Shown here piece after piece: positions 97 to 6,645 of a stretch of 42,705 bases of DNA. The stretch is taken from contig JAMASS010000039.1 in assembly GCA_024761205.1 (NCBI GenBank), forward strand, positions 178-42,882, given 5' to 3'. The notes under the pieces are model-generated. The model searched no databases. It was not told where the DNA came from and saw only the letters and a program-made list of their open reading frames with translations. Made by a program: the position numbers and the translations under genes. Source of the DNA: Limisphaerales bacterium (GTDB taxonomy: Bacteria; Verrucomicrobiota; Verrucomicrobiia; Limisphaerales; AAA164-E04). Position 1 is the stretch's first letter. Each line of letters begins with the position of its first letter.

Positions 97-840
97 TTGA
101 AGACAGACCGCCCTCGGCGGACAGGCCAAGGGCTTAAGCTCACTCTCGCCGCCCTCCTGACCGCCCTCGCCCTCCAACCCGCCGCCGCCGTTGCTCAGAG
201 CATCATCGCTGTCGGCAACTTGGGACAGTCGCAGGAGTTTACCTGGAGAGTTTTACCTGGTGAATCGCTAGCGACACAGTTCACCGTCGGCCCGCCTCGC
301 GAAGGCTTCACCGGCTGGAAGCTGGACAGGATCACCGGGGGTTTTGATGATTCCGGAGGCTCACCCGGCACTTTTGAGGTCAGTATTCTAAACGATGACT
401 CCGGCTCACCCGGCCCTATCGATAGCCCGCTGGCGACCTTGACCGGGCAGGCCCCATTGAGTAGTGGAAGGTATGACTTCCTGTCGCCCGCCGGCACTAC
501 GATTTCCCTGGAACCGGAGACGTCCTATTGGCTGGCGTATATGCAGGTAGGAGGAGCAAGCTCTTCTGATTTTTACAGAATAGGCTTAACAGACGTGCCC
601 AATGAGGACTCCAGGGCTCTGCAGGGATGGTCGATTGGCGACAACCATTGGCAGAATCCGGATGGGAGTAGATGGCAAGAATTTAGCCACCCTAGCGGCA
701 CACGCGTTCCTTTCCGATTCCGCGTGTTTGTCACGCCGGTGCCGGAGCCCTCGGAGTATGCGCTTTTCTTTGCCTTGGGCTTGGGCGCCTTCGCCCTTTG
801 GCATCGCCGTCGCCAACGAGGGCAGCGAGCCGCCGCCTAG
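97..840 (+). CDS. Secreted PEP-CTERM protein, choice-of-anchor R-like
   Basis: This is a 247-residue exported protein. Residues 1-34 form a signal peptide with basic residues, a hydrophobic core and an AAAVAQ cleavage region. The body (about 35-212) resembles the choice-of-anchor R family: a repeated GGSPGTF/SGSPGP pattern, then a beta-rich segment with TSYWLAY near 142-148. The C-terminus is a textbook PEP-CTERM sorting signal: VPEPSE at 215-220, a hydrophobic stretch 221-235 and a basic tail starting HRRRQR. It would be processed and anchored to the envelope by an exosortase, which is not in the window. The start is TTG with no clear ribosome binding site, so the exact start is uncertain. 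It is convergent with the protease-like gene downstream. Its biological role is unknown. Confidence 0.8.
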   Translation: MKTDRPRRTGQGLKLTLAALLTALALQPAAAVAQSIIAVGNLGQSQEFTWRVLPGESLATQFTVGPPREGFTGWKLDRITGGFDDSGGSPGTFEVSILNDDSGSPGPIDSPLATLTGQAPLSSGRYDFLSPAGTTISLEPETSYWLAYMQVGGASSSDFYRIGLTDVPNEDSRALQGWSIGDNHWQNPDGSRWQEFSHPSGTRVPFRFRVFVTPVPEPSEYALFFALGLGAFALWHRRRQRGQRAAA

Positions 841-958: not shown

Positions 959-2002
959 CTACTCCGCATCACGCAACTTGAACTCATCCCCGAGCTTCGC
1001 CAACACCCGCCGCAGCAATGTCGTTGGCAAAGCAAAGGTCGTCACGCGATCCACTCGCGCAATATTGATCCCAATCACCCGGCCGCTCAAATCCATAACC
1101 GCTCCGCCCATGGAGCGGACGTGAACCGGAATGTCATGTTGCATCACCTGCTCGAAGCCTGACAAGCGAGTGGAGGTTTCGCCGCTCAAAAGCTGATTTC
1201 GGTCAAAATGCCCAAAATAAGTGGATCGAAATCCCAAAGTCACATTGAGATTCAGTGTCTCTTCGCCGCGATGCAGCATCAATTCCACATTCTCGCCGGG
1301 ATGATGCGCCGCGATGGCAGCCTGAAGCTGCTCCACTAAGAGGACCACCTCGCCATTCACGGAGCTAATGATGTCTCCTTGTTGAATTCCGGCGCGCGCT
1401 GCCGCCGTCTCCTCCAAAACTTGACCAACCTGAACGCCTCCCAATGCCAACCCCTGTCGCCCCATTAAAATTCCCAGGGCCCCGCCTTCGCGTTTGATCG
1501 ACCGGCTATTGGCACTAACGATCCCTATCTTCGCGCTCCGTTTAGGACCCGACGGACTGACCAGAATCTTGCCTCGGGAAACACGCACCACTTCATGCAA
1601 GGGAGCGACATGGGTGAGAGACACATCCAGTCGAAGGGCTGCAACATCGTTGTTCTCGTCCACAGCAACCGAGACCGGCAAGACCTCTCGACTATCCGGC
1701 AATCGCACCACAGTCTTCCAGCCCAGCTCACTCGCCTTCGTCACCACCAGCCCATCCTCGCGAACGATGGTTCCGAGAGCGACCCGTTCCTCAGCGTCAA
1801 GAATCTCGACAGTGATCGCCGCCAATCGCTGATCGAGCTCGGCCACAGACGATAACGTCTGCTTGCCATTGGTTCGGAGCGGTGCCGGCAATTTCTCCAA
1901 TGGCTCCAAGGCATAACAGACCCCCCAGGCTAAACTGATAACCCCAAAGAGACCCAACCCGAACGTTGCGTTCACCCCTCTGCTAAGCGGCTTTTCCATC
2001 AT
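959..2002 (-). CDS. Exported protease-like protein with dead active site and PDZ domain
   Basis: This is an HtrA/trypsin-like protein of about 350 residues. Numbered from the longest frame (start 2023), a membrane segment or signal lies at 17-38. The N-terminal half of a trypsin fold spans about 60-165, a PDZ domain about 185-262 (RAGIQQGDIISSVNGE), and the C-terminal trypsin segment about 298-335. All catalytic signatures can be located but two are changed. The TAAH position reads TKAS, the Asp is kept in NNDVAAL, and GNSGG reads RSMGG, so His and Ser are absent. The PDZ sits between the two halves instead of after them. I place the start at the ATG pair near 2002/1999, because GGAG lies 4-7 bases upstream. 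It follows the fusion protease gene within about 28 bases and is probably co-transcribed. It is likely a scaffold, chaperone or regulator and not an enzyme (inference). Confidence 0.75.
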   Translation of the reverse strand: MMEKPLSRGVNATFGLGLFGVISLAWGVCYALEPLEKLPAPLRTNGKQTLSSVAELDQRLAAITVEILDAEERVALGTIVREDGLVVTKASELGWKTVVRLPDSREVLPVSVAVDENNDVAALRLDVSLTHVAPLHEVVRVSRGKILVSPSGPKRSAKIGIVSANSRSIKREGGALGILMGRQGLALGGVQVGQVLEETAAARAGIQQGDIISSVNGEVVLLVEQLQAAIAAHHPGENVELMLHRGEETLNLNVTLGFRSTYFGHFDRNQLLSGETSTRLSGFEQVMQHDIPVHVRSMGGAVMDLSGRVIGINIARVDRVTTFALPTTLLRRVLAKLGDEFKLRDAE

Positions 2003-2029
2003 CAATCTCCACACTTCAACCAAGTAACC

Positions 2030-3721
2030 CTACTGCCGTCGCCCCCGAAACCGCTCCAGTTTGGCTTCCACATCGATCCACTCCGATTCCCGGAGAACAC
2101 GCAACCGAACGACCTCACCCACACGGCGACTGCTGAGCGCCACAAGATACTCCCAGTCATCCTCAACCACAAACTCATCCACTTGCCGGATAATATCGCC
2201 TCTCTTCAGCGGAGAGTCCTCTCGCTCCACTCGGACCACCCGCACGCCAGGATTGGCGTCCACCGTGCGAACCCCCAGCCCACCCCGGCGGCCGCGCATC
2301 CGATTTGGCGGGATCACCACCCCTTCCTTCATGGGCTTCCAGTGCCTCAAAAACGCCTTAATCGGCGCGTGGTAATTTTGGTCCAAGCGCCCACCGATGC
2401 GACTGTGAATACCAATCAATTCACCGCGCATATTAAAAAGCGCACTTCCGGAATCGCCGCCAATAATGCAACAATCCGAACGCATCAGATTATCCTTCTG
2501 CAAGATGATTCGACCGATTCGCGCCACCACGCCCCGATCATCATCCAAACCGCCGGGATGTCCCAACGCAAAACACCACTCCCCAACTCGCGTTTGATCC
2601 ATGCCCGCCAGCGGCACATAAGGAAACGGTCCCTCACCGTCAATCTTAACCATGGCGGCGTCAGCAAACCGGAAAGCCCCAAGACTCCTAGCATCATGAT
2701 TCGATCCATCGGCCAAGCGGATCCGAATGTCCCGACCCGTCCCGCTGACATGTGCAGCCGTTAGCACGTAACCATCGGGAGACACGAGCACCCCACCACC
2801 ATTACCACCGTTCACCACCACGATAGCCTTTTCCACCGAAGCGATCGCGCTCTGCAACCGATCCTCCATAGCTAGCAAGTCCTCAAGTCCCGTTGGCGTC
2901 GCGTTGACCCGCTCCTCCCGATCTTCCAGCCACTCCAATTCGACCAAAACCGGACGGTGATCCGATATGATGAGGTCATCGACAACGTCTACCTCCACCA
3001 CGCGCCAAGCATCGCGACAACGGATCAATATATAGTCGATCATCGACTGAGGAGCCACGGCATCGATCCAGTCGTCTGCCAACAAGGTCTGTATAGGAAC
3101 AGAGCTCGGACGCGCATTGAGGTCACCTGCGAGAATCACCGGCACATCCTCATCTCCACCAAAAACTTGACGAATCTGTTGCACCTGCTGCGTTCGAGTC
3201 GATTCACTCTGATGGCACAAATGGGTCCCCAGAAAATCAAAACTCGGTAAGCCGTTATCTGGGACAATCCGCGCCGCCAACACGATTCGCGGTTCCTGTC
3301 CGAATTCAAAAGGCAAGGGATGATTCCTTGAGTGTTCAATGGGAAACCGAGACAAGACCGCCTCGCCATATTCCCCTCCGTCGTAAGGCATAGCCGCGCC
3401 GAAAACGAAATTCATCTCGCAAAGCGCCGCTAAGCGTGCCGCCTGATCGACCCCGTTGACTCGCCCCGTTTTCCGGTCCACCTCCTGCAGGGCCACCACG
3501 TCAGGATTCAACCCGTTAATCATGCCGGCAAGCCGTTCGTAGTCGAACTTCCCATCGGTTCCCTCTCCGTGGTGAATATTGTAAGTCAAAACGCGGAGCC
3601 GCTCGGCATCGGCACTCACCGCACAGAGAACCGACAGGCTGATGGCGAGGCCCCACAAAAAGGATACTATTCGCCGTTCATCCCACGCGATCTTTCCCCC
3701 AGATTGAATCAATGTCCTCAT
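2030..3721 (-). CDS. Exported endonuclease/exonuclease/phosphatase-trypsin-PDZ fusion
   Basis: This 563-residue protein has three enzyme-type modules. A signal peptide (about 18-39) is followed by an EEP-fold hydrolase at 41-263 with its hallmark residues: YNIHH (Asn48), LQEVD (Glu80), THL (His167), AGDLNARP (Asp200, Asn202) and SDHRP (253-257). A short charged helical linker precedes a trypsin-like protease (about 290-460). Its triad looks intact: TAAHV (His324), FADAAMVKI (Asp354) and GGDSGSALF (Ser424). A PDZ domain follows at about 478-555. EEP enzymes cleave nucleic acids, phospholipids or inositol phosphates, and the substrate cannot be told from the sequence. The gene begins 21 bases after the CehA pseudogene and is followed directly by the dead protease-like gene. 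The junction is clean and in frame, so this is a real fusion in this sequence. I know of no standard family with this architecture. Confidence 0.85.
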   Translation of the reverse strand: MRTLIQSGGKIAWDERRIVSFLWGLAISLSVLCAVSADAERLRVLTYNIHHGEGTDGKFDYERLAGMINGLNPDVVALQEVDRKTGRVNGVDQAARLAALCEMNFVFGAAMPYDGGEYGEAVLSRFPIEHSRNHPLPFEFGQEPRIVLAARIVPDNGLPSFDFLGTHLCHQSESTRTQQVQQIRQVFGGDEDVPVILAGDLNARPSSVPIQTLLADDWIDAVAPQSMIDYILIRCRDAWRVVEVDVVDDLIISDHRPVLVELEWLEDREERVNATPTGLEDLLAMEDRLQSAIASVEKAIVVVNGGNGGGVLVSPDGYVLTAAHVSGTGRDIRIRLADGSNHDARSLGAFRFADAAMVKIDGEGPFPYVPLAGMDQTRVGEWCFALGHPGGLDDDRGVVARIGRIILQKDNLMRSDCCIIGGDSGSALFNMRGELIGIHSRIGGRLDQNYHAPIKAFLRHWKPMKEGVVIPPNRMRGRRGGLGVRTVDANPGVRVVRVEREDSPLKRGDIIRQVDEFVVEDDWEYLVALSSRRVGEVVRLRVLRESEWIDVEAKLERFRGRRQ

Positions 3722-3742: not shown

Positions 3743-4911
3743 CTAGCGCGTCTCAACCAACTTCGCCTGATAAAACTCCAGCGCATCTCGATATTCACCA
3801 ATTACCTCGGCTGACAATACACCCCCGTGCCGCCGCAGTTCATTGGCCACGCGCTCAATCAAATACTTGACCTCAACCCACCTCGGTCGAATCGGACGCC
3901 TGTCCACCCAAATATGAAACGGTGCAGCATGCGCAAAACGCAATCGGCGATCTTCAGTCCAAGTAACGCACCGAACCGCCGTCCCACCGCTTGGCATAAG
4001 GTCAAAACCACAGTTGAGCAACGCGCAATAATTGCTGAATCCCCAATAAATCCAAGCCTCCTCCGTGTAACCGCGACTCGTGAGCTCCAGGTCCAAATAG
4101 CCCGAGAGATACTCCGGATACCCATCTCCATACCGAAACTTCATCCGCCAAACGTGATTATTCGTCAGCTCATATACATCCATGTCCACCCCCGGCAGCA
4201 ACATCATGGACCAAGGCCAGTTGTGCTTGTCAAGACCCGGCACCAAGCCCTGTCGCCGCACCGCTTGGATCACTGCGCAAACCGGATGCGCCTCCAAATC
4301 AATCAGTTCGCGATAAATCAAATCACCTCCACCCGGCACGGATACTGTCCGTGAACTTCGAACCGACGTCTCGGCGTACTCGGCAACCCAAAAAGCCAGT
4401 GGCAAGACCACGTTTAAATCTTCCGCCAAAACAGGGTTCAGCAAATCCACAACCGACCGATGGACGTGAGTATCGCCGGAATGCCACCCCACCCCTGTGA
4501 CGCCATATCGGGCCACTGCTCCGAGGACACCGTAACATCTCGGTTGATCCCCCCCTCATATTAACCTCGCACATAGACGGCAAATATTCCTTCCATCGCT
4601 CGACCGTCAACCGATATCTGCCAACCGGAAGGCCCAGCTCAACCGGATGCGCCGAAATCATCGTGTGCACCTCCTGACTCGCACCTCGCCGTCGATCACA
4701 AACAACCGCCGAACCCAAAAAAACTCCCGGATTTTACGGTGAAGAGTTCACCCTCGCTGTTCTCCAAATAAATTCAGGCCGGGAGTATTTGCTCTGACTG
4801 AGCATTGACAACCCGGCCAACCATCTGTCCGGCATTTAGGTACGATCCATTCGCCGCTGTCGCCAACAGAATTGTCAGCCACCACCATCGTTTGGAAAGA
4901 ATCCGAATCAT
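3743..4911 (-). pseudogene. CehA/McbA-type metallohydrolase, frameshifted
   Basis: The first start is the ATG at 4911, giving a signal peptide (RILSKRWWWLTILLATAANG) and then GRVVNAQSEQILPA before a stop. The coding sense continues in other frames: IYLENSEGE near 4765, then AHPVELGLPVGRYRLTVE near 4640 and EYLPSMCEVNMRG near 4565. The last 257 codons (4516 to 3743) are open and contain GWHSGDTHVHR, the HxH metal-binding signature of PHP-type CehA/McbA hydrolases. At least two frame changes (near 4774 and 4520-4560) break the gene. It lies 10 bases after the GGT pseudogene and 21 bases before the EEP-trypsin fusion, as in an operon. The C-terminal half looks recently intact, so the decay may be young. 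Confidence 0.75.
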
Positions 4912-4921
4912 AACACAAGGC

Positions 4922-6362
4922 CTAGCACCCGATTGCACAACCCACCTTCCGAGGCCCGGCTCCCCAAGAATACCGCAACAGCTCTTCCATACGCCAGATA
5001 CTCTGATACCCACCAAAGGCACTCACACCCGACTTCACTTGATGCCCCATCGCAACCAATGGTTCGCGGACTTCTCCCGAAATCCCCGCTTTCAACTGCA
5101 CCAACGCCCGGCCCGTAGAACGGCTTCCCGTTGGTATGGAACTCTCCGAATGGGACACTCGGGGTTGACCGCCTGCCTGTTGCGGCGGCATCCCAAAATC
5201 GGTCATGGTCATCACAAAACCTGCGAATGTCTCTGAGGTTGAAATACTCCCATCACTCCAAACGACATCACCGGTCACCCGTTCTTCGTCAAAAATCCGG
5301 GAATGACTGTACAAAACGGTCGCTTGTGCGGTTCCAACTTATTGATATCCTCGGGGTTGAATGAGAAGAGCTGATCGCGATTCTCCATCGCAACACCCAG
5401 CCCATCTGGCACATACCGGGAGACCCAGCCATGATAAAGCTCTTGAATGAAGGAAACCATATTCCCCTCTCCCTCCGCAGATGTCAGGCAAACTATGTCC
5501 GAATTTCCGGTCAGCCGCCCCGTGGCAACCTTTTGCACCGCCTTCTTGGGGCCCGCTCCTTCCCACATTCCTTCGAAATCAACCACTTCACCGGCACATC
5601 GGCAAAGTTCATAACAACATAATAAACTGCTCGATATTCAAAGGCCAACTTCTTGGCCTCAATGAAGAGATGGAGATGCCTCGCGGATTCGGCGTCAACC
5701 ATCTGATGTCGAAATGCTCGAGCATGTTCAAAATCTACAAGGCCGCGATACCCTGGCCATTCGGCGGGAGTTCCCACACATCAAAGCCACGATAATTGGC
5801 GCTCATCATTCGGCGATCCTCCCCCCCTCGCAGAAAGATCGCCATCTGTCCCTAGTCAAGCTCTCAAAAAAATCCGCGCATCCCGGGTTCTTGGAGATAT
5901 CCCCAAATCCTAAAAACTCCCCACCTCGCAGATAGGTATCGGTAATGTGGGATGCGTGGCACTCGGTGTCTTCAGCCAAACGCGAGGACAATCTGAGAAA
6001 TTGGAAAACTCGCATGCGCATAATAATATCGCCTCGGCCAGCAATTCCTGTCGCTTGAGTTTGCCATAGCGTTGTGACAAGGTACCCTTTCTTCCCAACC
6101 CGACACGCTCCAAGACAGCGGCGAGTGGAGACCGATCTTCTCAGCCTCCTCGAGACTCCAATGATACGACGAACAACCACTGGCATTGAGACCGTAAAGG
6201 GATTGGCTGACCCCTCATCCCGACCGATCACAAACAAGTCGCCACCAGGGCCATTGCTCATCGGTTCCACAACGTTCAAGACGGCGTTGGCAGCAATTAC
6301 CGCATCCACCACACTCCCTCCCTTCTTCAACACCTCGAAGACGGCCTGTCTCGCTAAGGGTT
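4922..6362 (-). pseudogene. Gamma-glutamyltransferase, heavily frameshifted
   Basis: Recognisable in order on the minus strand are KKGGSVVDAVIAANAVLNVV and EPMSNGPGGDLFVIGRD (6340-6220), then a scrambled middle. SAEGEGNMVSFIQELYHG and NPEDINKLEPHKRPF follow (about 5510-5310), and the C-terminal MTDFGMPPQQAGGQPR and ending PRKVGCAIGC (about 5200-4923). These are signature stretches of gamma-glutamyltranspeptidase, which hydrolyses or transfers gamma-glutamyl groups of glutathione. Many frame changes separate them. The nucleophile position, normally Thr in a DT-x-YL context, reads DIVCL here, consistent with loss of function. The gene heads the operon-like run that continues with the CehA pseudogene. 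The N-terminal export signal is missing. Confidence 0.8.
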
Positions 6363-6645
6363 AGCCCGTACACACAATCTCTTAACATTAAACTTGGAAG
6401 AAGGTTTAATTTGAGGCGTTGAGCAAATAAAGGACTTCGTCGCTCAAAAAGTCTCTAAAAAGCAGATGAAAAACGTCCCGCCTGAGAAAATTCAACCGGC
6501 ACAACCCCATGTTGGCGTCCGGCCATCGGCGTGTTGAGATACACTGGTGTAGAACTGGACTTGACTGAACTATATGTGAATCTTCTGGCGACCGCCATGA
6601 ATGTTCAAACAGCCAATTATACCCATCTCGGATTCGTCGACATTA

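What the first reader, a model, noticed from the sequence alone, without database searches (positions are those of the whole stretch)
2030..3721. Three-module secreted enzyme: EEP nuclease/phosphatase fused to a live trypsin and a PDZ domain
The sequence shows complete catalytic signatures of two unrelated hydrolases in one exported chain (EEP: Asn48, Glu80, Asp200/Asn202, SDH 253-255; protease: His324, Asp354, Ser424) plus a PDZ reader. I know of no standard family with this architecture. A protease that carries its own nuclease, phosphatase or phospholipase could act as a toxin-like, self-processing or surface-remodelling enzyme (inference). It is fully intact in a region where its operon partners are dead.
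Basis: partly seen in the sequence, partly recalled or inferred. Interest (0 to 1): 0.65.

Follow-up and report, generated by a model that had tools for sequence, protein, structure and literature searches.

The report
Protease fused to phosphoester-cutting enzyme
In one genus of uncultured Verrucomicrobiota, an exported HtrA-type protease carries a second, unrelated enzyme domain at its front end, and it is encoded next to a dead look-alike protease that relatives across the phylum nearly always keep beside it; the three-part protein is real and conserved, but its substrates are unknown.

Summary
Window 2030-3721(-) encodes one intact 563-aa protein with a signal-like N-terminus, an EEP domain (endonuclease/exonuclease/phosphatase), an HtrA-type trypsin and a PDZ domain.

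It is not a frame error. All four held genomes of the genus carry the same fusion (60-63% identical). None of the other 316 genomes of the order does; in sister genera EEP and protease hits lie on separate contigs. Each half falls in a single clade, which fits one fusion event.

The larger pattern lies just outside the coordinates. The protease half belongs to a Verrucomicrobiota family that is followed by the same partner in 50 of 53 loci. In the window that partner is the next gene (959-2023(-)). It is a conserved pseudoprotease: a trypsin fold with PDZ nested inside it, His replaced by Ser and the catalytic Ser lost. In eight loci the active protease and the pseudoprotease are fused in one reading frame.

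Most likely this is an exported active/inactive HtrA pair, like MamE/MamO in principle, whose active member gained an EEP hydrolase in one genus. Substrates and EEP activity are untested. Toxin function has no support.

The parts
2030..3721 (-). Whole gene: EEP + HtrA-type protease + PDZ, 563 aa
   Evidence: Intact ORF; same fusion in all four held genomes of the genus
3602..3721 (-). N-terminal region (residues 1-40) with a hydrophobic helix, probable Sec signal peptide
   Evidence: Read from the sequence; helix 15-33 in the predicted model; no signal-peptide predictor was run
2957..3589 (-). EEP hydrolase domain (residues 45-255)
   Evidence: PF03372 E 2.5e-19; model matches 4ruw Z 28.8, rmsd 2.0 over 229 residues; catalytic residues conserved 22/22
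2408..2800 (-). HtrA-type serine protease domain (residues 308-438); H324, D354, S424
   Evidence: PF13365 E 2.5e-23; triad conserved 53/53; HhoA Z 23.2
2057..2284 (-). C-terminal PDZ domain (residues 480-555)
   Evidence: PF13180 E 9.3e-10
959..2023 (-). Partner gene: HtrA-like pseudoprotease, 354 aa, with PDZ nested inside the trypsin fold
   Evidence: Pfam Trypsin_2 and PDZ_2; model pLDDT 90.9 matches AlgW Z 25.2 with only 184 residues aligned across model 58-349; His to Ser 41/42, catalytic Ser never Ser in 42
3743..4902 (-). Broken CehA/McbA-type metallohydrolase gene (pseudogene)
   Evidence: tblastn with the intact L034 copy: three frames, about 117 residues missing inside
4928..6378 (-). 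Broken gamma-glutamyltransferase gene (pseudogene)
   Evidence: tblastn with the intact L034 copy: pieces in three frames

Best explanation
An exported, HtrA-type serine protease with C-terminal PDZ acquired an EEP-type metal-dependent phosphoesterase at its N-terminus in the ancestor of one genus, taking the place of the protease's own leader. It works together with the pseudoprotease encoded next to it, which probably regulates, scaffolds or targets it in a mixed complex. The EEP domain most likely cleaves a phosphoester (phosphorylated glycan, lipid or nucleotide) at the same place in the envelope where the protease cuts proteins. Shown: the architecture, its conservation in four genomes, conserved active sites, the conserved partner, and natural fusions of protease and partner. 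Inferred: export, physical complex, catalytic activity, substrates.
For: All four genus genomes carry the fusion and no other genome of the order's 320 does. Active sites are conserved. Nonsynonymous change is far below synonymous change in all three domains (pN 0.15-0.35, pS 0.67-0.86). Protease followed by pseudoprotease in 50 of 53 loci, most within 20 bp, often overlapping by 4 bp. Both are in one reading frame in eight loci of six genomes, in both orders. Fused protease halves form one clade (100/100) and fused EEP halves one clade (91/97). The precedent for an active HtrA needing an inactive HtrA-like partner is MamE/MamO (PMC4794232).
Against: No biochemical data. The relative placement of EEP and protease in the model is uncertain (pTM 0.69). 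The fusion is confined to one genus with four genomes, so the EEP could be a recent and marginal addition. Operon partners GGT and CehA are lost or broken in some members, so the shared pathway is not clear. A complex between protease and pseudoprotease could not be modelled.
Confidence: 0.5

Rival explanations
1. An ordinary envelope quality-control HtrA; the EEP domain is a passenger kept for secretion or co-expression, with no joint function.
For: Protease relatives without EEP keep the same pseudoprotease partner across the phylum, and the fusion is restricted to one genus.
Against: EEP catalytic residues stay invariant in all four fusions and EEP shows low nonsynonymous change, so it is not decaying.
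Confidence: 0.25
2. The EEP domain serves as a non-catalytic ligand-binding or targeting module for phosphorylated surface molecules, bringing the protease to its site.
For: Several inactive enzymes are used as binding modules (established knowledge); here the neighbouring gene is itself a dead enzyme.
Against: All metal and catalytic positions tested in EEP are intact.
Confidence: 0.15
3. A toxin-like or self-processing effector.
For: Signal-bearing chain with two hydrolases.
Against: Nothing toxin-specific was found; both halves are common as separate genes in the phylum.
Confidence: 0.04
4. The fusion is an assembly or frame artefact joining two genes.
For: The two genes just upstream are broken in this genome.
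Against: Same in-frame fusion in four genomes at 60-63% identity.
Confidence: 0.01

Closest known systems
HtrA/Deg (Do) serine proteases: HhoA, MucD, DegP, DegQ
   Same: Trypsin-fold protease with H-D-S triad followed by PDZ; structural matches Z 22-23 for HhoA and MucD
   Different: An EEP domain at the N-terminus; far below the curated cut-off of the Do family (114.7 against 416.2 bits)
Stand-alone EEP hydrolases, for example 4ruw (Beutenbergia) and BT3783 mannosyl-6-phosphatase (4c1r)
   Same: EEP fold; Z 28.8 and 25.0
   Different: Not reported as fused to a protease; substrate of the domain here unknown
MamE/MamO, active HtrA and pseudoprotease pair of magnetotactic bacteria (PMC4794232)
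   Same: Active HtrA-type protease working with a catalytically dead HtrA-like partner
   Different: MamO has a TauE-like domain and a metal-binding role; the partner here has a PDZ nested inside its dead protease domain, and the pair is in Verrucomicrobiota
Tryp-Endonuclease_NS protein of Fusobacterium nucleatum (PMC2605481)
   Same: Trypsin joined to a nuclease-type hydrolase in one chain
   Different: Unrelated nuclease family; no PDZ or EEP named there

Membership tests
HtrA/Deg (Do) protease family | Trypsin-fold domain with His-Asp-Ser triad | tested here: met
   H324, D354, S424 in 53/53; fold match
HtrA/Deg (Do) protease family | One or more C-terminal PDZ domains | tested here: met
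   PDZ_2 480-555
HtrA/Deg (Do) protease family | Curated NCBIfam score for the Do family (TIGR02037) | tested here: not met
   114.7 bits against a cut-off of 416.2; so HtrA-like, not a called Do member
HtrA/Deg (Do) protease family | Trimer-based oligomer | not testable with these tools
   Single-chain prediction only
EEP superfamily | Pfam Exo_endo_phos above gathering score | tested here: met
   70.3 bits against 24.5
EEP superfamily | Conserved metal and catalytic residues (Asn, Glu, His, Asp-x-Asn, Asp-His) | tested here: met
   N48, E80, H167, D200, N202, D254, H255 in 20/20
EEP superfamily | Metal-dependent phosphoesterase activity | not testable with these tools
   Needs protein
MamE/MamO pair | Active HtrA-type protease encoded with a dead HtrA-like partner | tested here: met
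   Adjacent in 50/53 loci; partner active site lost
MamE/MamO pair | Membership in the MamE or MamO protein families | tested here: not met
   MamO 42.8 and MamE 34.1 bits for the fusion, and MamE 36.8 bits for the window partner, against cut-offs of 800; works like it in principle, not a member

The most novel reading that the evidence does not exclude
A phylum-wide, uncharacterised class of paired HtrA systems in which an active protease is governed by a pseudoprotease with a PDZ inserted into its dead catalytic fold; in one genus the active member also gained an EEP hydrolase, giving one complex that cuts both peptide and phosphoester bonds.
Probability: 0.35. Interest if true: 0.7.

Novelty: new variant of a known kind. 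Interest (0 to 1): 0.5.

Why it matters
It would show how a stress-type protease is combined with a second, chemically unrelated hydrolase, and it points to a widespread active/inactive HtrA pair in Verrucomicrobiota for which the literature searches made here found no description. Relatives with the plain, unfused cassette would allow a direct test of how a dead HtrA-like partner controls a live one; the precedent found here is MamE/MamO.

Tried and rejected
Frame-error origin of the fusion: rejected by four genomes. Search for an intermediate with EEP and protease as adjacent separate genes: none seen in the loci fetched. Plasmid records: 824 match, none covers 80% of the query. Literature: no paper found describing the fusion or the Verrucomicrobiota pair; the library is limited to open-licence papers. 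N-terminal extensions on L045, L046 and L056 were considered as further fusions; by eye their translations look like upstream read-through with a later signal-like segment, and they were not scanned for domains. Structure searches by Foldseek on the whole models listed only HtrA proteases among the rows shown. Other phyla were reached only by the pattern-limited genome scan, so an independent fusion elsewhere is not excluded.

Full report
What is there. The window's minus strand carries one intact 563-residue ORF at 2030-3721. Pfam places Exo_endo_phos at 45-255, Trypsin_2 at 308-438 and PDZ_2 at 480-555, each above its curated cut-off. The best NCBIfam profile for the C-terminal part is the Do/HtrA protease subfamily, though well under its cut-off.

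The fusion is real and restricted. Searches of the family found the full-length fusion in the other three genomes of the genus as well (alignment, 60-63% identity to the window protein). A profile of the four fusions run over all 320 held genomes of the order found full-length matches only in those four; elsewhere the matches cover either the EEP half or the protease half. In the two sister genera, seven genomes, no full-length match was found; where both halves were seen in one genome they lie on different contigs. UBA2970 is one of the four: its contig length equals that of a held genome. Trees put the fused protease halves in one clade (100/100) and the fused EEP halves in one clade (91/97), in line with one fusion event. 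Synonymous differences are near saturation (pS 0.67-0.86) while nonsynonymous differences are 0.15-0.35 in all three domains, as expected for genes under constraint.

The partner gene. The next gene, 959-2023(-), is HtrA-like but dead. In 42 homologues the His position is Ser in 41 and Thr in one, the Asp is kept in 41, and the position of the catalytic Ser is Met, Val, Cys, Ile or Thr, never Ser. Pfam finds the first part of the trypsin profile before the PDZ, and in L030 the last part after it; the predicted model (pLDDT 90.9) aligns to HtrA proteases with about 184 residues spread over model residues 58-349 (AlgW Z 25.2, rmsd 2.0). The natural reading is a PDZ nested inside a trypsin fold; the coordinates of the model were not inspected. 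Conserved residues around the lost site (Lys96, Ser98, Glu99) suggest that the dead site still has a role (inference).

The pair. Among 53 loci with the protease half, 50 have a pseudoprotease next to it on the same strand, most with gaps of under 20 bp or short overlaps. Of the three left, L092 has both in one ORF, L037 ends within the partner gene, and L029 has another gene downstream. Eight ORFs in six genomes hold both proteins in one frame, in both orders. A search of 387 genomes of the phylum found the pseudoprotease in 37, often twice. In the window's genus three genomes also carry a second, unfused protease-pseudoprotease pair.

The operon. In two relatives (L075, L076) the order is gamma-glutamyltransferase, CehA/McbA-type metallohydrolase, fusion, pseudoprotease, with short overlaps between several of them; in L077 the metallohydrolase was not found between the two. 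In the window the first two genes are broken across frames with losses, while fusion and pseudoprotease are intact.

Structure. The model of the fusion has high local confidence (pLDDT 90.1) but pTM 0.69, so the arrangement of domains is unsure. The EEP part matches solved EEP enzymes (4ruw Z 28.8; BT3783 mannosyl-6-phosphatase Z 25.0; also nocturnin and TDP2), and the protease part matches HhoA and MucD. These matches show fold, not substrate.

How it most likely works. An exported HtrA-type protease acts with a dead HtrA-like partner; this is like MamE/MamO, where the inactive MamO is needed for MamE-dependent proteolysis (PMC4794232), but the proteins are not members of those families. In one genus the active member gained an EEP phosphoesterase at its front. 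Export, complex formation, activity and substrates are inferred. Two surveys of trypsin and PDZ architectures were searched for the word exonuclease and had no hit; one lists a trypsin joined to a different nuclease family (PMC2605481; PMC6411480).

Verdict. The finding is correct as an observation, new in architecture within what was searched, and best read as a new variant of the HtrA kind. The toxin idea has no support. The phylum-wide pair is the more general result.

Noticed in passing
window 959-2023; L006-L057, L078-L094: The protease half's family is nearly always followed by a homologue of the window's downstream pseudoprotease, across several Verrucomicrobiota families.
   Followed up: yes
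L092, L095-L101: Eight natural single-frame fusions of active protease and pseudoprotease, in both orders.
   Followed up: yes
window 3743-6378: Two neighbouring genes (CehA/McbA-type metallohydrolase and gamma-glutamyltransferase) are broken here but intact in L075 and L076.
   Followed up: partly
L029; G234:C46:106897-107901: One genome has the protease without the partner beside it, and a pseudoprotease hit on another contig.
   Followed up: no
L086, L087, L088: Second, unfused protease-pseudoprotease cassettes in three genomes of the same genus; by eye their neighbours look like mutY-like and 2-thiouridylase-like genes.
   Followed up: partly
window 97-840: Short ORF whose C-terminus (VPEPSEYALFFALGLGAFALWHRRRQR) looks like a PEP-CTERM sorting signal; no Pfam match.
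   Followed up: no
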